Positions 1,403 through 61,599 of a DNA stretch of 64,000 bases are shown here, piece by piece. A model generated the notes under the pieces. It ran no database searches and was not told the origin of the DNA. It saw nothing but the letters and a program-made list of their open reading frames with translations. The stretch covers positions 119,658 through 183,657 of the forward strand of contig KV908490.1 of the NCBI GenBank assembly GCA_002005505.1, in the 5' to 3' direction. Source of the DNA: Botryococcus braunii (Eukaryota; Chlorophyta; Trebouxiophyceae). A program made the translations under genes and the position numbers. Position 1 is the stretch's first letter, and every line of letters starts with the position of its first letter.

Positions 1403-6744
<5,342 letters not shown>

Positions 6745-13293: not shown

Positions 13294-14044
13294 TCTTGCA
13301 TTTAGGTTATGGGCTGAAGACCTGCAAGCACGAGCAGAGCGAGTGATCAGTTGTCTTAGTTGGCTAGGCAGTCCGTGTGACGGCCTTACGCCATAAGCAA
13401 AACACTTGCTGTCTTCACACATGCATCAATCATTGATAGTGCTAGGCAAGTGATTACATTTAGAGTCTTCTTATGCTAACGCAGTTGAGCCTCCATAACA
13501 TAAATCCTTGCATACGGTAACAAATATCTTGCACGACACTTGTCTCCCTGATCTTCACTCATAGGTATGACACCCACAACCGATGAAGATACAGATGTTC
13601 AACAATTAAGTTATAGTAAGCAAGTAACTTGTCCATGCATGTCTTAACATGTCTAACTAGGCCAATCGGCCTTACCTGCAAGCACGAGCAGAGCGAGTGA
13701 TCAGTTGTCTTAGTTGGCTAGGCAGTCCGTGTGACGGCCTTACGCCATAAGCAAAACACTTGCTGTCTTCACACATGCATCAATCATTGATAGTGCTAGG
13801 CAAGTGACATTCAACTCCGCTGCTTGCCTTTCAAATACCAGCGTTGCAAGATCACGCGTTGATCTGGCAACCACGTGCGAATACCGTACGACACTATTCA
13901 TAACATGACCTTGTGCTCAATTACACTTCTCTGTGATAATCGTCTCATGTATGCCTTTGTTCATGCCAATGTTTATCAGTTCCTTTCAAGAGTTCATGTC
14001 TGTTCAAGAGGAAGGCAATCTCACTATATGTCACAAAATGTAAC
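13294..14044 (-). repeat. Copia-C 3' LTR
   Basis: Identical by eye to 18414-19164, offset exactly 5,120. It contains a 133-bp direct repeat at 13321-13453 and 13675-13807. On the minus strand the first copy ends CAG|GTAAGG (donor-like) and the second ends CTGATC...TTGCAG|G (branch-point and acceptor-like), defining a possible intron 13322-13675. Confidence 0.92.
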
Positions 14045-18413: not shown

Positions 18414-19164
18414 TCTTGCATTTAGGTTATGGGCTGAAGACCTGCAAGCACGAGCAGAGCGAGTGATCAGTTGTCTTAGTTGGCTAGGCAGTCCGTGTGA
18501 CGGCCTTACGCCATAAGCAAAACACTTGCTGTCTTCACACATGCATCAATCATTGATAGTGCTAGGCAAGTGATTACATTTAGAGTCTTCTTATGCTAAC
18601 GCAGTTGAGCCTCCATAACATAAATCCTTGCATACGGTAACAAATATCTTGCACGACACTTGTCTCCCTGATCTTCACTCATAGGTATGACACCCACAAC
18701 CGATGAAGATACAGATGTTCAACAATTAAGTTATAGTAAGCAAGTAACTTGTCCATGCATGTCTTAACATGTCTAACTAGGCCAATCGGCCTTACCTGCA
18801 AGCACGAGCAGAGCGAGTGATCAGTTGTCTTAGTTGGCTAGGCAGTCCGTGTGACGGCCTTACGCCATAAGCAAAACACTTGCTGTCTTCACACATGCAT
18901 CAATCATTGATAGTGCTAGGCAAGTGACATTCAACTCCGCTGCTTGCCTTTCAAATACCAGCGTTGCAAGATCACGCGTTGATCTGGCAACCACGTGCGA
19001 ATACCGTACGACACTATTCATAACATGACCTTGTGCTCAATTACACTTCTCTGTGATAATCGTCTCATGTATGCCTTTGTTCATGCCAATGTTTATCAGT
19101 TCCTTTCAAGAGTTCATGTCTGTTCAAGAGGAAGGCAATCTCACTATATGTCACAAAATGTAAC
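18414..19164 (-). repeat. Copia-C 5' LTR
   Basis: Pairs with 13294-14044 without an indel. It holds the same internal 133-bp direct repeat (18441-18573 and 18795-18927). Confidence 0.92.
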
Positions 19165-21612: not shown

Positions 21613-22316
21613 TGTAAACTTTACAGTCGGCGTTCCCTGTATGACCCGGGCACGAAGGGTGATTAGCTCGTCGGTACTCTTGTTGTATGTCGGAGAACAA
21701 GCAGTGACCGAATGTGAATGAGGACTTGATAGGCAACAGTCAAGAGATAAGCACCCGAAGTGCCTTTAATGTCCCAATCAAGTCATTACAATGCTACTTG
21801 CTTTCTCTCATCGCTCCGAAATTCAAACTACTCAATCTACGTAACTACCGATAGTCTGCATTATCAGTGTTCAATGAAGAAAACATTAGCACCAACTTAA
21901 TAACATTACCTAGACCTTTCCTAACCCATTGTCAATGAGGCTTCAGTCCCTTAACGTCAGGTTACCTGTATGACCCGGGCACGAAGGGTGATTAGCTCGT
22001 CGGTACTCTTGTTGTATGTCGGAGAACAAGCAGTGACCGAATGTGAATGAGGACTTGATAGGCAACAGTCAAGAGATAAGCACCCGAAGTGCCTTTAATG
22101 TCCCAATCAAGTGCCTCGTCCTTGCACGCCGGTGTCATAAATCCTTTCTAGCAAACCGTGTCTGATTACCTCATCCTTCCTAATCAACGTACCATTGGTC
22201 TAGATGAGATCTGGCAAAACTCCCAGGTTCTGCCACCTATTATTCATTGAAGCTGATCTGGCCACTATTACTCTTCTGAGGGAAAGGCACCAAAATGTTC
22301 TATCACTATTATAACA
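21613..22316 (-). repeat. Copia-B 3' LTR
   Basis: Contains the duplicated module typical of this family. On the minus strand, donor-like CAG|GTAACC is at about 21965 and acceptor-like CATACAG|G at about 21637. The LTR runs TG...CA in element sense. Confidence 0.93.
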
Positions 22317-28184: not shown

Positions 28185-28884
28185 TGTAAACTTCTACAGT
28201 CGGCGTTCCCTGTATGGGCACGAAGGGTGATTAGCTCGTCGGTACTCTTGTTGTATGTTGGAGAACAAGCAGTGACCGAATGTGAATGAGGACTTGATAG
28301 GCAACAGTCAAGAGATAAGCACCCGAAGTGCCTTTAATGTCCCAATCAAGTCATTACAATGCTACTTGCTTTCTCTCATCGCTCCGAAATTCAAACTACT
28401 CAATCTACGTAACTACCGATAGTCTGCATTATCAGTGTTCAATGAAGAAAACATTAGCACCAACTTAATAACATTACCTAGACCTTTCCTAACCCATTGT
28501 CAATGAGGCTTCAGTCCCTTAACGTCAGGTTACCTGTATGACCCGGGCACGAAGGGTGATTAGCTCGTCGGTACTCTTGTTGTATGTCGGAGAACAAGCA
28601 GTGACCGAATGTGAATGAGGACTTGATAGGCAACAGTCAAGAGATAAGCACCCGAAGTGCCTTTAATGTCCCAATCAAGTGCCTCGTCCTTGCACGCCGG
28701 TGTCATAAATCCTTTCTAGCAAACCGTGTCTGATTACCTCATCCTTCCTAATCAACGTACCATTGGTCTAGATGAGATCTGGCAAAACTCCCAGGTTCTG
28801 CCACCTATTATTCATTGAAGCTGATCTGGCCACTATTACTCTTCTGAGGGAAAGGCACCAAAATGTTCTATCACTATTATAACA
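28185..28884 (-). repeat. Copia-B 5' LTR
   Basis: Matches 21613-22316 but lacks 6 bases near the acceptor-like site (about 28210). The predicted intron is 28210-28533. Target duplication CAAAC follows at 28885-28889. Confidence 0.93.
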
Positions 28885-32187: not shown

Positions 32188-32911
32188 TGTTATATTATAA
32201 ATGAGTGATAGGTGCCTTTCCCTCAGGAGAGTAATAGTGGCCAGATCAGCTCGGATCAACTAGCGGGAACATTCATTAGAATGAGTAATAAGCGGCAGAA
32301 CCTAGGAGTTCTGCCAGGACCAATCTAGACCAATTTCGCGTAGATTAGGGAGAATGAGGTAATCGGACACGGTTTGCTAGAAAGGATATATGTCGCTGGC
32401 TCAAAGGGACGAGGCACTTGATTGGGACTACAAAAGCACTTCGGGTGTTTGTCTCTTAACAATTGCCAGTCAAGTCACCTCACACAGTCGCCACTGCTTG
32501 TTTCTCGACACACAACAAGAGTGCCGCCGGACTAAACACCCTCGTGCCGGGTCATACAGGTAAACTGATGCCATAGCATTAAAGCTACAAGGACAATGGA
32601 TTAGGAAAGGGTCTAGATAATGTGTATTAGGAAAGTGCTAATGTTTTAGCTCATCGAACACTGGTAATACAGACTATCGGTAGTTACGTAGATGGAGTAG
32701 TTTGAATTACTGAGTGATGAGAGAGAACAATAAGCATTGTAAGACTTGATTGGGACTACAAAAGCACTTCGGGTGTTTGTCTCTTAACTGTTGCCAGTCA
32801 AGTCACCTCACACAGTCGCCACTGCTTGTTTCTCGCACACAACAAGAGTGCCGCCGGACTAAACACCCTCGTGCCGGGTCATACAGGAAACGCCAAGCAC
32901 AGAAGTTTACA
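32188..32911 (+). repeat. Copia-A 3' LTR
   Basis: 724 bp, TGTTATA...TTTACA. A TATA-like GATATATG at about 32386 lies about 30 bases before the first direct repeat (32416-32560); the second repeat is 32744-32887. Donor-like CAG|GTAAAC is at 32557-32565 and acceptor-like CTAAAC...CATACAG|G ends at 32886. Confidence 0.92.
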
Positions 32912-34095: not shown

Positions 34096-34930
34096 TCAGG
34101 AAGCAGGTGCCTTGCCCTTGCCCTTGTCGTGGGCATCAGGCTTCTTGCAGAACTTGGCCGTGTGGCCCAGTTCCCCGCACTTGTAGCAGCGGCCTTCGCG
34201 CTTCATCTTCGCTGCGTACCCGCCCGGCTGCGTGCCCGAAGGCCCAGCACCAGATCCATTCGAGCCCGGAGGCGTCCCAAAGGCAGCGCGCTTAGGAGGT
34301 GGAATAGCATCCCCGTCTGCCAGGCGCTTGCCCTTGATCAAGGCCTTCAGCTCCTGAGTCTCCTTCTCGTTCGCTGCACCCGGCAACATGGGTAGGAAGG
34401 ATTCAGCTTCCTTTGCAGCTTGAACAACAATGTCAAGGTTACCAAGCTCGTTACCAACGAGTGAATCTCTTGTTAAAGCCTCCAAAATGTTCGGTTTTAA
34501 CCCCGCCCTAAAGTAAGCACAAGCTTCAGGGCCCGAGATAGGATACTTGACAGCTTCAACCATGATAGCACGAAACATAGCATGGTAAGCTGCAACGGAC
34601 TTGGTCTGCCTCAATCGCGCCAACCGAGGCCGCATAGTATTTTCAACTTCCACTTCAACGAAATGTGCGAGAAGGGAGGTCTTGAAAATGGCAAAGTCCT
34701 TCACGTCCTTTCCTTGAACAGAAAGGGACCTTTTCAGGAGCGCCCATTCCTTAGCGGCACGGCCCGTAAGGCAAAGGGAAGCGTGGGACACTAATTCACC
34801 ATCATGAAGGCCCAAAATAGACGAGTAGTCATCAAATTGACCGAACCATGTGATGATATCCGTCCCCTCCTTTTCTCCATTGAATAACGGGGCCGGTGGG
34901 CGCCGAAAGGGCCCACGTGACGGTTCCGTT
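34096..34930 (-). pseudogene. Ty3/gypsy gag with CCHC knuckle
   Basis: A retrotransposon gag domain (ITWFGQFDDYSS, ACLTGRAAKEW-like helix, AYHAMFRAIM) is followed by the CCHC knuckle CYKCGELGHTAKFC and a Lys-rich tail. The frame appears open upstream of the first methionine-like codon to about 34930. It belongs with the protease and RT to its left. Confidence 0.85.
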
Positions 34931-35673
<743 letters not shown>

Positions 35674-36376
35674 TAATATATTCTGAGCTTGGCGTATCCT
35701 GCATGGTGGCGGCGCGGAGGGTGTTAGACGATGTCCCCCTACTTGTACGTTGTTAAGTAGGCAGGGACATATACAAGTCAAGGACTGGTTAGCAACTGAT
35801 TAATAGACACCCGGAGTGCCACTGTAGTTCCAACCAAGTCTTACAATATCTCTCATCTCTCCTAACGAGGTGACGCAGTTCAAACAAGCCTAACCTGCTC
35901 TCACTCAGGTCGTGCTCCTTACTTTGTCCGATGAGCTAAACTCAACTCCATATGTCCAACATGCTCTAACAATGTTTATCTAGATGATAAACCCAGGAAT
36001 ACAATAAGGATTAAGTCACCTGCATGGTGGCGGCACGGAGGGTGTTAGACGATGTCCCCCTACTTGTACGTTGTTAAGTAAGCAGGGACATATACAAGTC
36101 AAGGACTGGTTAGCAACTGATTAACAGACACCCGGAGTGCCACTGTAGTTCCAACCAAGTGCCTTCCCTATCCGTGCTTGCCCCATAAGCCTTCTTTCTG
36201 CAAACGTGTCTGTAACTTGCGTTATGATTGTCTATGTTCAAATGCATGTATTGCCTGGCAGAACCCGGAGTTGTGCCCCTCCTTCCCAACGGGTATTGTC
36301 TTCATCCGGAGACTTGCCATTATTTCTCCTCTGAGGGAAAGGCATAAATATTAATTAACATATATTATTTTTGCCA
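35674..36376 (-). repeat. Copia-D 3' LTR
   Basis: The direct repeat of 142 bp occurs at 35698-35839 and 36019-36160. On the minus strand the first copy ends CAG|GTGACT and the second has CTAAC 25 bases before ATGCAG|G, defining a possible intron 35699-36019. Confidence 0.92.
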
Positions 36377-42110: not shown

Positions 42111-42800
42111 TAATATATTCTGAGCTTGGCGTATCCTGCATGGTGGCGGCACGGAGGGTGTCAGACGATGTCCCCCTACTTGTACGTTGTTAAGTAGGCA
42201 GGGACATATACAAGTCAAGGACTGGTTAGCAACTGATTAATAGACACCCGGAGTGCCACTGTAGTTCCAACCAAGTCTTACAATATCTCTCATCTCTCCT
42301 AACGAGGTGACGCAGTTCAAACAAGCCTAACCTGCTCTCACTCAGGTCGTGCTCCTTACTTTGTCCGATGAGCTAAACTCAACTCCATATGTCTAACATG
42401 CTCTAACAATGTTCATCTAGATGATAAACCCAGGAATACAATAAGGATTAAGTCACCTGCATGGTGGCGGCACGGAGGGTGTTAGACGATGTCCCCCTAC
42501 TTGTATGTTGTTAAGTAGGCAGGGACATATACAAGTCAAGGACCGGTTAGCAACTGATTAATAGACACCCGGAGTGCCACTGTAGTTCCAACCAAGTGCC
42601 TTCCTTATCCGTGCTTGCCCCATAAGCCTTCTTTCTGCAAACGTGTCTGTAACTTGCGTTATGATTGTCTATGTTCAAATGCATGTATTGCCTGGCAGAA
42701 CTCGGAGTTCTGCCCCTCCTTCCTAACGGGTATTGTCTTCATCCGGAGACTTGCCATTATTTCTCCTCTGAGGGAAAGGCATAAATATAAGTTAACATAA
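42111..42800 (-). repeat. Copia-D 5' LTR
   Basis: Matches 35674-36376 with scattered differences. Its outer 15-20 bases are replaced by or expanded into CA repeats. Confidence 0.88.
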
Positions 42801-43235: not shown

Positions 43236-43965
43236 TGTAAACTTCTGAGCTTGGCGTTTCCTGTATGACCCGGCACGAGGGTGTTTAGTCCGGCGGCACT
43301 CTTGTTGTATGTCGATTAACAAGCAGTGGCGACTGTGAGTGAGGTGACTTGACTGGCAACAGTTGAACGACAAACACCCGAAGTGCTTTTGTAGTCCCAA
43401 TCAAGTCTTACAATGCTTATTGCTCTCTCTCATCACTCAGTAATTCAAACTACTCTATCTACGTAGTTACTGATAGTCTGCATTACCGATGTCCGATGAG
43501 CTAAAACATTAGCACTTTCCTAATACACATTATCTAGACCCTTTCCTAATCCATTGTTCTTGTATGTGTGATGCCATGACAACAGTTTACCTGTATGACC
43601 CGGCACGAGGGTGTTTAGTCCGGCGGCACTCTTGTTGTATGTCGATTAACAAGCAGTGGCGACTGTGAGTGAGGTGACTTGACTGGCAACAGTTGAACGA
43701 CAAACACCCGAAGTGCTTTTGTAGTCCCAATCAAGTGCCTCATCCCTTCGAGCCAGCAACATATAACCTTTCGAGCAAACCGTGTCTGATTACCTCATTC
43801 TCCCTAATCAACGTAAATTTGGTCTAGATTGGTTCTGGCAGAACTCCAAGGTTCTGCCACCTATTACTCATTCTAATGAATGTTCCCGCTGGTTAATTCG
43901 AGCTGATCTGGCCACTATTACTCTTCTGAGGGAAAGGCACCAAATGTTCTTTCACTATTATAACA
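43236..43965 (-). repeat. Copia-E 3' LTR
   Basis: 730 bp, with a few differences from the visible part of the 5' LTR. The predicted intron (minus) is 43261-43590, with donor CAG|GTAAAC and acceptor CATACAG|G. TTATATG lies about 30 bases before the first repeat. Confidence 0.92.
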
Positions 43966-46545: not shown

Positions 46546-47239
46546 TGTGAAAGGTTATGGGCAATCGGCTTTCCCTGTACAAAGCAGACAGGTCGTCAAT
46601 AGACGAAGTTACTCCAGCTACAGTCCGTACGACTGTCTGCTGAGTGCCACACACAACTGTCGGACAAGACTAGCATCTGGTGATGCCCAGCATCTTTCAC
46701 AACCAGTTCCGTTACATCATTATCTTGTACACAAGCACCGATCAAGCAATCACTAGATAAGGCTCTAGACGGCTACGTTCAAGTACATGCCTATACTCCC
46801 TGAAGTCACTGTCCCTTATCTGTTTGAGTGACTACAGGGTACACTAAGCTTGTTCACTCTCACAATAGCAACAATGATACAACACACACTGCCGCACCGT
46901 ACCTGTACAAAGCAGACAGGTCGTCAATAGACGAAGTTACTCCAGCTACAGTCCGTACGACTGTCTGCTGAGTGCCACACACAACTGTCGGACAAGACTA
47001 GCATCTGGTGATGCCCAGCATCTTTCACAACCAGTTGGTATTCACTCCGGTGGGGCAGCCTTAAGAGTTCATCCGACAAACGTGTGATCTAGATAGGATT
47101 GTACCTTATGTTCGAAAACGTCCAGAATCTGCCGTGTCTCAAGGTACCTTATGTTCTCAATGGACCCATATCCTAATAGTGCACACATGAAGATCACTTA
47201 AAGCACAAGGCATTCAATAATAATGTTCAGAACTCAACA
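46546..47239 (-). repeat. Copia-F 3' LTR
   Basis: Direct repeat of 135 bp at 46574-46708 and 46902-47036. On the minus strand, donor CAG|GTACGG at 46902 and TTGAC 21 bases before TTTGTACAG|G at 46575. Confidence 0.93.
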
Positions 47240-52863: not shown

Positions 52864-53557
52864 TGTGAAAGGTTATGGGCAATCGGCTTTCCCTGTACAA
52901 AGCAGACAGGTCGTCAATAGACGAAGTTACTCCAGCTACAGTCCGTACGACTGTCTGCTGAGTGCCACACACAACTGTCGGACAAGACTAGCATCTGGTG
53001 ATGCCCAGCATCTTTCACAACCAGTTCCGTTACATCATTATCTTGTACACAAGCACCGATCAAGCAATCACTAGATAAGGCTCTAGACGGCTACGTTCAA
53101 GTACATGCCTATACTCCCTGAAGTCACTGTCCCTTATCTGTTTGAGTGACTACAGGGTACACTAAGCTTGTTCACTCTCACAATAGCAACAATGATACAA
53201 CACACACTGCCGCACCGTACCTGTACAAAGCAGACAGGTCGTCAATAGACGAAGTTACTCCAGCTACAGTCCGTACCACTGTCTGCTGAGTGCCACACAC
53301 AACTGTCGGACAAGACTAGCATCTGGTGATGCCCAGCATCTTTCACAACCAGTTGGTATTCACTCCGGTGGGGCAGCCTTAAGAGTTCATCCGACAAACG
53401 TGTGATCTAGATAGGATTGTACCTTATGTTCGAAAACGTCCAGAATCTGCCGTGTCTCAAGGTACCTTATGTTCTCAATGGACCCATATCCTAATAGTGC
53501 ACACATGAAGATCACTTAAAGCACAAGGCATTCAATAATAATGTTCAGAACTCAACA
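52864..53557 (-). repeat. Copia-F 5' LTR
   Basis: Same length as 46546-47239; one base differs by eye (G/C in CCGTACGACT). It carries the same internal direct repeat. Confidence 0.93.
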
Positions 53558-54948: not shown

Positions 54949-55654
54949 TGTTATAATAGTGACAGAACATTTTGATGCCTTTCCCTCAGAAGAGTAATAG
55001 TGGCCAGATCTGCTTCAATGAATAATAGGTGGCAGAACCTCGGAGTTTTGCCAGAACCAATCTAGACCAATTATACGTTGATTAGGAAGAATGAGGTAAT
55101 CAGACACGGTTTGCTAGAAAGGATTTATGACGCCGGCATGCAAGGACGAGGCACTTGATTGGGACATTAAAGGCACTTCGGGTGCTTATCTCTTGACTGT
55201 TGCCTATCAAGTCCTCATTCACATTCGGTCACTGCTTGTTCTCCTACACACAACAAGAGTACCGACGAGCTAATCACCCTTCGTGCCCGGGTCATACAGG
55301 TAACCTGACGTTAAGAGACTGAAGCCTCATTGACTATGGGTTAGGAAAGGTCTAGGTAATATTATTAAGTTGGTGCTAATGCTTTTCCTCATTGAACACT
55401 GATAATGCAGACTATCGGTAGTTACGTAGATTAAGTAGTTTGAATTACGGAGCGATGAGAGAAAGCAAGTAGCATTGTAATGACTTGATTGGGACATTAA
55501 AGGCACTTCGGGTGCTTATCTCTTGACTGTTGCCTATCAAGTCCTCATTCACATTCGGTCACTGCTTGTTCTCCTACACACAACAAGAGTACCGACGAGC
55601 TAATCACCCTTCGTGCCCGGGTCATACAGGGAACGCCGAACACAGAAGTTTACA
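54949..55654 (+). repeat. Copia-G 5' LTR with internal duplication
   Basis: 148-bp repeats 55153-55300 and 55483-55630 are identical. The first ends CAG|GTAACC; the second has CTAAT 26 bases before CATACAG|G. The predicted intron is 55300-55629 (330 nt). A weak TATA-like TTTATGA lies about 35 bases before the first repeat. Confidence 0.93.
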
Positions 55655-55668
55655 GGTTATGGGCCCAC
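55655..55668 (+). promoter_or_regulatory. Copia-G primer-binding site
   Basis: GGTTATGGGCCCAC directly after the LTR. Confidence 0.88.
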
Positions 55669-60893: not shown

Positions 60894-61599
60894 TGTTATA
60901 ATAGTGACAGAACATTTTGATGCCTTTCCCTCAGAAGAGTAATAGTGGCCAGATCTGCTTCAATGAATAATAGGTGGCAGAACCTCGGAGTTTTGCCAGA
61001 ACCAATCTAGACCAATTATACGTTGATTAGGAAGAATGAGGTAATCAGACACGGTTTGCTAGAAAGGATTTATGACGCCGGCATGCAAGGACGAGGCACT
61101 TGATTGGGACATTAAAGGCACTTCGGGTGCTTATCTCTTGACTGTTGCCTATCAAGTCCTCATTCACATTCGGTCACTGCTTGTTCTCCTACACACAACA
61201 AGAGTACCGACGAGCTAATCACCCTTCGTGCCCGGGTCATACAGGTAACCTGACGTTAAGAGACTGAAGCCTCATTGACTATGGGTTAGGAAAGGTCTAG
61301 GTAATATTATTAAGTTGGTGCTAATGCTTTTCCTCATTGAACACTGATAATGCAGACTATCGGTAGTTACGTAGATTAAGTAGTTTGAATTACGGAGCGA
61401 TGAGAGAAAGCAAGTAGCATTGTAATGACTTGATTGGGACATTAAAGGCACTTCGGGTGCTTATCTCTTGACTGTTGCCTATCAAGTCCTCATTCACATT
61501 CGGTCACTGCTTGTTCTCCTACACACAACAAGAGTACCGACGAGCTAATCACCCTTCGTGCCCGGGTCATACAGGGAACGCCGAACACAGAAGTTTACA
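60894..61599 (+). repeat. Copia-G 3' LTR
   Basis: Identical by eye to 54949-55654, preceded by polypurine AAAGGCAAGGGGAAG and followed by GAAAC. Confidence 0.94.

What the first reader, a model, noticed from the sequence alone, without database searches (positions are those of the whole stretch)
54949..55654. A probable spliceosomal intron inside every copia LTR, bounded by a duplicated exon
In five LTR types the two internal direct repeats end exactly where splice signals sit. First-repeat ends: CAG|GTAACC (B, G), CAG|GTAAAC (A, E), CAG|GTGACT (D), CAG|GTAAGG (C), CAG|GTACGG (F). Second-repeat ends: ...CAG|G with a branch-like CTAAT, CTAAAC, CTAAC, CTGAT or TTGAC 21-26 bases upstream. Predicted introns are 330 (G), 327 (A), 321 (D), 354 (C) and 328 (F) nt. 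Because the sequence before the donor equals the sequence before the acceptor, spliced and unspliced RNA give the same junction next to U5. I infer that minus-strand strong-stop DNA from a spliced transcript could pair with the second repeat of the 3' LTR, restoring the intron each cycle.
Basis: partly seen in the sequence, partly recalled or inferred. Interest (0 to 1): 0.92.

Follow-up and report, generated by a model that had tools for sequence, protein, structure and literature searches.

The report
Intron rebuilt by reverse transcription
In a green alga, jumping genes of the copia type appear to carry a removable intron inside their end repeats and to rebuild it each time they copy themselves through RNA, although copying through spliced RNA should normally erase introns.

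Summary
All 12 full copia LTRs located in the window read U3-R1-spacer-R2-U5. R1 and R2 are 98-100% identical; R1 ends CAG|GT, R2 ends CAG|G.

Three LTR lineages (C, F, D/G/E/A) are at or near shuffle-level identity to each other, yet keep this layout. By a matrix from host tubulin introns, the R1-end donor is the best GT of the stretch examined in 6 of 7 types, the R2-end acceptor the best AG in 6 of 7.

In family F the base before R2 takes all four values, while the bases before R1 do not vary (100 of 100 listed); LTR pairs agree in 36 of 36. I read this as the scar of first-strand transfer landing on R2. A 41-bp deletion sits identically in R1 and R2. In family C, 63 of 67 one-sided variants stay in one element. 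TGTAA, a green-algal poly(A) signal, lies 1-3 bases before R2, so the acceptor should be missing from the RNA's 3' end, leaving that intron copy unspliced.

No RNA was seen; splicing is inferred.

The parts
54949..55654 (+). G element 5' LTR (U3-R1-spacer-R2-U5)
   Evidence: direct repeat with 60894-61599; GAAAC flanks both ends of the element (read)
55121..55130 (+). TATA-like stretch (GGATTTATGA), -32 to -23 of R1 start
   Evidence: weak in D and F
55153..55299 (+). R1 = predicted exon 1, start site (A) to splice donor, G 5' LTR
55300..55629 (+). Predicted 330-nt intron (spacer + R2), GTAACC...CATACAG
55476..55480 (+). TGTAA, chlorophyte-type poly(A) signal, 2 bases before R2
   Evidence: only TGTAA in the stretch examined
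55483..55629 (+). R2, identical to R1; ends with the acceptor CAG|G
55655..55668 (+). Primer binding site GGTTATGGGCCCAC
   Evidence: tRNA identity recalled
61098..61244 (+). R1, G 3' LTR
61245..61574 (+). Predicted intron copy in the G 3' LTR (R2 61428-61574)
53221..53354 (-). R1, F 5' LTR
   Evidence: one R1-only substitution
52893..53220 (-). Predicted 328-nt intron, F 5' LTR (R2 52893-53026, TGTAA 53030-53034)
46903..47036 (-). R1, F 3' LTR
46575..46902 (-). Predicted intron copy, F 3' LTR (R2 46575-46708)
18796..18925 (-). R1, C 5' LTR
18442..18795 (-). Predicted 354-nt intron, C 5' LTR (R2 18442-18571)
13676..13805 (-). R1, C 3' LTR
13322..13675 (-). Predicted intron copy, C 3' LTR (R2 13322-13451)
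42457..42597 (-). R1, D 5' LTR
42136..42456 (-). Predicted 321-nt intron, D 5' LTR (R2 42136-42276)
36020..36160 (-). R1, D 3' LTR
35699..36019 (-). Predicted intron copy, D 3' LTR (R2 35699-35839)
32416..32559 (+). R1, LTR A
32560..32886 (+). Predicted 327-nt intron, LTR A (R2 32744-32886)
43591..43736 (-). R1, LTR E
43261..43590 (-). Predicted 330-nt intron, LTR E (R2 43261-43406)
28534..28680 (-). R1, B 5' LTR
28210..28533 (-). Predicted 324-nt intron, B 5' LTR (5-bp deletion in R2 28210-28351)
21966..22112 (-). R1, B 3' LTR
21637..21965 (-). Predicted 329-nt intron copy, B 3' LTR (R2 21637-21783)

Best explanation
These copia elements carry a spliceosomal 5'-leader intron inside the LTR and rebuild its 3' half in every replication cycle. 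Transcription starts at the first base of R1 in the 5' LTR (inferred). The 5' leader is spliced from the end of R1 to the start of U5, so R1 joins U5 directly (inferred). In the 3' LTR the RNA is cleaved about 10 nt into R2, set by TGTAA just before R2; the acceptor at the end of R2 is therefore absent and the intron cannot be spliced there (inferred). Minus-strand strong-stop DNA, primed next to U5, is a copy of R1-U5; its 3' end, with occasional untemplated bases, pairs with the first bases of R2 at the RNA's 3' end and is extended through spacer, R1 and U3. The new LTR is U3-R1-spacer (from the 3' LTR) plus a fresh R2-U5 copied from the spliced 5' leader. R2 is thus a per-cycle copy of exon 1, which is why the two stay identical and why exon 1 must also work as a 3' splice site. 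That R1 and R2 exchange sequence and that transfer lands at R2 is strongly supported by DNA evidence; that the R1-U5 junction is made by the spliceosome is the inferred step.
For: Concerted evolution: C, F and the D/G/E/A/X group compare at 0.51-0.57 identity in U3, R1, spacer and R2 (shuffled 0.49-0.52), but R1 vs R2 is 0.98-1.00 within the LTR of each of 7 types. Differences present in both LTRs of a pair, hence present at integration: 1 site over 15 C pairs, against 24 private sites; 0 over 6 G pairs. C (41 LTRs, 25 groups): 6 variant kinds found in both R1 and R2 recur in 2 or more groups (31 group occurrences); 63 of 67 one-sided kinds stay within one group. D: 0 of 23 and G: 0 of 20 one-sided kinds recur across different elements.
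Indel: two sequenced F LTRs (L141, L142) lack the same 41 bases in R1 and R2 while their 194-base spacer is identical to that of the window copy; 6 of 96 F junctions show the matching shorter period.
Transfer scar: F, three free bases before R2: CGG 70, CGT 23, CGA 5, CGC 2 of the 100 listed (750 matches in all); before R1: ACC in 100 of 100 listed (889 in all). LTR pairs by spacing agree in 36 of 36, 54% expected per pair. C: the base before R2 is the most variable of 751 positions over 25 groups; 15 of 16 pairs share the dinucleotide. D: rank 6 of 720.
Splice sites: ranks; U1 with the usual 5' end; 37 host introns of 74-683 nt.
Poly(A): TGTAA lies 1-3 bases before R2 in all 7 types; UGUAA peaks near -17 from the cleavage site in chlorophytes (PMC1868727, passages).
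Against: No RNA evidence. The TATA-like stretch is weak in D and F. A and E have no YTRAY branch match and the D acceptor is weak. In the G subfamily the base before R2 hardly varies (28 G, 1 C; rank 80 of 707). In C, 4 one-sided kinds do recur in different groups, two in each pair of groups for R1 and two for R2, all at positions 121-130 of 130; because they occur on both sides I take them for mutation-prone sites, but this was not tested. The search for poly(A)-tailed copies that would show the cleavage site gave 0. C, D and G LTRs were taken from the best 40 of 132, 859 and 822 candidates, so single-repeat LTRs are under-sampled there; in F, 1 of 96 lacks the spacer and R2 (L135). The host's use of UGUAA rests on its being a chlorophyte, which tubulin supports but does not prove.
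Confidence: 0.8

Rival explanations
1. No splicing: reverse transcriptase jumps from R2 to R1 on an unspliced leader (direct-repeat deletion), giving R-U5 strong-stop DNA that then lands on R2. The product is the same as that of splicing.
For: Direct-repeat deletion by RT is common in retroviruses (recalled). It would also give the transfer scar before R2 and homogenise part of R. Two R2-only kinds near the R2 3' end (positions 121 and 130) recur in two C groups each, where this rival would expect inherited R2 variants.
Against: It does not explain why R1 ends at the best or second-best splice donor and R2 at a good acceptor in lineages whose LTRs are otherwise hardly alignable. It needs nearly complete jumping, since no triple repeat was seen among 96 F junctions. 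R1-only kinds recur in C at positions 121 and 128 too, and no one-sided kind recurs across elements in D or G.
Confidence: 0.11
2. Ordinary LTR with its start site at R2; R1 is a duplicated upstream element kept identical by DNA gene conversion.
For: The scar before R2 is where any element starting at R2 would show it. Gene conversion between close repeats is plausible.
Against: Conversion does not explain repeat boundaries at donor and acceptor or the TGTAA placement, and R1 and R2 were identical at integration in 14 of 15 C pairs. By eye no TATA-like stretch lies about 30 bases before R2 in the spacers printed (a weak GCATAAG about 20-25 bases before R2 in C).
Confidence: 0.07
3. Chance duplications or assembly artefacts.
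For: None found beyond the repeats themselves.
Against: 768 exact F U3-R1 junctions and 750 spacer-R2 junctions on many contigs; 90 of 96 sampled junctions have the R2 junction at a fixed distance.
Confidence: 0.01

Closest known systems
SIV/HIV-2 intron in the R-U5 leader
   Same: A functional intron within R-U5 of the LTR-derived leader (PMC1766366, one passage, citing Viglianti 1992, which I did not read).
   Different: The passage mentions no duplicated exon and no role in rebuilding the LTR; here the intron includes a copy of exon 1 and a poly(A) signal. Not compared by sequence.
Intron-containing Penelope-like elements
   Same: Retroelements that keep introns (PMC3846280, passages).
   Different: Different RT class; the authors suggest that an antisense template would keep introns, not rebuilding from a spliced leader.
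Ty1/copia LTR retrotransposons
   Same: Integrase before RT, PBS and PPT, 5-bp target duplications.
   Different: Ordinary copia LTRs have one R (recalled); here R1 and R2 bracket a predicted intron.
Retrotransposons with internal introns, e.g. Ogre (recalled, no call)
   Same: Splicing of an LTR element transcript.
   Different: The intron lies outside the LTR; here it lies inside the LTR and the spliced RNA can be the template.

Membership tests
Ty1/copia | Integrase upstream of RVT_2 reverse transcriptase in one polyprotein | tested here: met
   gag_pre-integrs, rve, SH3, then RVT_2 in the B and F ORFs
Ty1/copia | PBS directly after the LTR, PPT directly before the 3' LTR | tested here: met
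   GGTTATGGGCCCAC after the LTR in F, C, G; GGCAAGGGGAAG before the 3' LTR in F and G, GACAAGGGGAAG in C
Ty1/copia | Primer is a half tRNA-iMet, as in Drosophila copia (recalled) | tested here: inconclusive
   PBS fits the recalled iMet anticodon arm; no host tRNA gene was compared (one search found none in the window)
Ty1/copia | 5-bp target site duplication | tested here: met
   CAATC on both sides of one F element on C1; GAAAC (G) and GATCT (F) in the window (read); C was not resolved
Ordinary U3-R-U5 LTR | A single R between U3 and U5 | tested here: not met
   Two copies in all 12 window LTRs located; 1 of 96 F LTRs sampled has a single R
Spliceosomal intron | GT-AG ends that fit host donor and acceptor sites | tested here: met
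   (weakest: D acceptor)
Spliceosomal intron | Removal from RNA | not testable with these tools
   no RNA-seq available
SIV/HIV-2 R-U5 intron | Homology of donor and acceptor with the lentiviral leader | not tested
   functional resemblance only; one passage read

The most novel reading that the evidence does not exclude
A lineage of copia retrotransposons keeps a spliceosomal intron through reverse transcription of spliced RNA. The poly(A) site lies inside the intron, so only the 5' copy is spliced, and the first strand transfer rebuilds the acceptor half of the intron from the spliced exon itself in each cycle. R2 is a heritable structure whose sequence is not inherited from R2.
Probability: 0.75. 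Interest if true: 0.92.

Novelty: new variant of a known kind. Interest (0 to 1): 0.86.

Why it matters
Reverse transcription of spliced RNA is expected to erase introns. Here the layout would let the spliced RNA be the template and still restore the intron. An element could then use a leader intron (for expression, export or control of a promoter-proximal poly(A) signal) without losing it. The layout also gives a simple DNA signature (duplicate exon, poly(A) signal before the second copy, scar before R2) that can be searched for in other genomes.

Tried and rejected
Chance or artefact: rejected. Ancient duplication without exchange: rejected by within-LTR identity of R1 and R2 against near shuffle-level identity between lineages. 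Start site at R2: disfavoured (see rivals).

Led nowhere: relatives in viral contigs (none, then one weak 37-residue match, L148, not studied) and genome contigs (none); poly(A)-tailed copies (0 matches to one pattern); rbcL for naming the organism (none held); L014, L015 and L017 as tubulin genes for introns (poor alignments; the two L015 introns were dropped). No triple repeat was seen among the 96 F junctions compared. L135, the one F LTR without spacer and R2, could come from DNA deletion between the repeats or from reverse transcription; both give the same sequence, and its 5' partner L147 has both repeats, so I do not count it as proof of splicing.

Literature: ten searches were answered. 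In their listings I saw no description of an intron rebuilt this way; only CC-licensed PMC papers are held, and I read passages of six papers, none in full.

Full report
WHAT IS THERE. The window lies in a 176-Mb unnamed assembly. A beta-tubulin put together from exons is 97% identical to that of Tetrabaena socialis, 95% to Haematococcus and up to 95% to listed land plants (Marchantia) (best 120 of 8000 listed), so the host is of the green lineage, most likely a chlorophyte alga; tubulin alone does not prove the class. Twelve LTRs with both repeats were located in the window, and a thirteenth is cut by the window end. Each reads U3 - R1 - spacer - R2 - U5. R1 is 130 to 147 bases; R1 and R2 are identical or nearly so (0.98-1.00 in the seven types compared). 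R1 starts with A after a C (ACTTG in C, D, G, E, A and X; AACTGG in F), about 30 bases after a TATA-like stretch that to my eye is clear in A, E and X, fair in G and C, and weak in D and F. R1 ends CAG|GT and R2 ends CAG|G. TGTAA stands 1 to 3 bases before R2 in all seven types and is the only TGTAA of the stretch examined in six of seven (C has a second, far upstream).

INDEPENDENCE. The elements share one copia pol lineage: RT regions are 69% identical between F and C and 68% between B and C; F and B polyproteins are 48% identical overall. Their LTRs are far more diverged. C, F and the D/G/E/A/X group compare at 0.51-0.57 identity in U3, R1, spacer and R2, against 0.49-0.52 for shuffled sequence; D to G/E/A/X is 0.62-0.66 in R1 and R2. 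So the same layout has been kept while the sequence was replaced.

SPLICE SIGNALS. Spliced alignment of four host tubulin genes gave 37 usable introns, 74-683 nt long (two doubtful introns of L015 dropped). Scored by this matrix over the last 200 bases of U3 through U5, the GT at the R1 end is the best of all GTs in six of seven types and second in G; the AG at the R2 end is top in six of seven and fifth of 55 in D. Because the last bases of R1 and R2 are the same, the acceptor score ties at the R1 end. YTRAY motifs start 25-30 bases upstream in five of seven types and are absent in A and E; 22 of 37 host introns have one. The U1 genes have the usual 5' end.

EXCHANGE BETWEEN THE REPEATS. In 41 C-family LTRs (25 groups), six variant kinds found in both R1 and R2 recur in two or more groups (31 group occurrences). 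Of 67 one-sided kinds, 63 stay within one group; four recur in two groups each, two on R1 and two on R2, all at positions 121-130. In 22 D LTRs, 0 of 23 one-sided kinds recur across contigs; two R2-only kinds are each shared by two LTRs on one contig, probably one element, as a dead-end copy error would be. In 29 G LTRs, 0 of 20 one-sided kinds recur, several of these belonging to one 5-bp deletion. Differences between R1 and R2 shared by both LTRs of a pair: one site over 15 C pairs (the pair on C260 was left out because its LTRs probably belong to two elements), with 24 private sites; none over six G pairs. In 30 fetched F LTRs, 29 have R1 = R2 and the other is the window's own 5' copy (these were best matches). 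A natural experiment: two sequenced F LTRs on different contigs lack 41 bases of R1 and exactly the same 41 of R2, with the spacer 194/194 identical to the window copy; four more LTRs have the matching distance but were not sequenced.

THE PROBABLE TRANSFER SCAR. In family F the pattern with three free bases before R2 has 750 matches; of the 100 listed, the third base is G 70, T 23, A 5, C 2. The same test before R1 has 889 matches; all 100 listed read ACC. Of the listed R2 sites, 36 pairs are LTRs of one element by spacing, and all 36 agree; 54% would be expected per pair. Four F LTRs missed by the pattern have a length change at the same place. In C the base before R2 is the most variable of 751 and 15 of 16 pairs share the two bases; in D it ranks 6 of 720; in G it hardly varies (rank 80 of 707). 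Untemplated bases added when reverse transcriptase reaches the RNA 5' end would leave such a mark (recalled from work on Ty1 and retroviruses; the Ty3 review PMC5371799, searched, does not use the terms). I take it to place the first strand transfer at R2.

PUTTING IT TOGETHER. The strong-stop DNA must end at the start of an R and carry that R joined to U5. If it came from R2 in an unspliced leader, R2 variants would be inherited; with the exceptions told above they are not. So R1 was joined to U5. Splicing from the R1-end donor to the R2-end acceptor does just that. UGUAA peaks about 17 bases before the cleavage site in chlorophytes (PMC1868727, passages; UGUAA is also the main signal in Chlamydomonas, PMC4025486, passages), so the RNA should end about 10 bases inside R2: enough for pairing, and short of the acceptor. 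The 3' copy of the intron is then unspliceable and passes into the new LTRs. These last points are inference.

HOW STABLE IT IS. Of the 100 listed F U3-R1 junctions (768 in all), 96 lay within the range of the R2 list. 90 have an R2 junction nearby (83 at 319, 6 at 278, 1 at 321). Of the six others, four have both repeats with a length change before R2, one LTR is cut off in the spacer, and one (L135) has a single repeat. L135 is the 3' LTR of an element whose 5' LTR (L147) has both repeats, with CAATC on both sides. No triple repeat was seen in this sample.

LIMITS. No RNA was seen. LTR samples for C, D and G come from the best 40 of 132, 859 and 822 candidates; of the rows I read all of C, about half of D and two thirds of G, so intact two-repeat copies are favoured. 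The closest known case that I found is the functional intron in SIV/HIV-2 R-U5 (PMC1766366, one passage); Penelope-like elements keep introns in another way (PMC3846280, passages).

Noticed in passing
window 18414-18441 and 52864-52892 (C and F U5, minus strand): In C and F the end of U5 holds GCCCATAACC, the reverse complement of the first bases of the PBS (GGTTATGGGC) that follows, so the PBS could pair with U5; G and D lack it.
   Followed up: no
L027 (C47), about 829-1502: An F LTR cut 24 bases short of its end is fused directly to a complete F LTR; a third LTR lies 6.3 kb upstream.
   Followed up: partly
G000 C7 and C16 (L141, L142): F variant with a 41-bp deletion in both R1 and R2; 6 of 96 sampled junctions have the matching distance.
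   Followed up: yes
G000 C128:306275-308420: Cluster of four U1 snRNA-like matches within 2.2 kb, one of them below the family cut-off.
   Followed up: no
window, from about 7760 to beyond 8449: Long array of short repeats with spacings of mostly 9-15 bases.
   Followed up: no
window 34096-34992 and 5779-6744: A Retrotrans_gag plus zinc-knuckle ORF and a DUF4218 ORF.
   Followed up: no
whole genome: Family F is very large and has many near-identical copies: 889 matches to the U3-R1 pattern; the 41 best matches listed all read 100% (rounded).
   Followed up: partly
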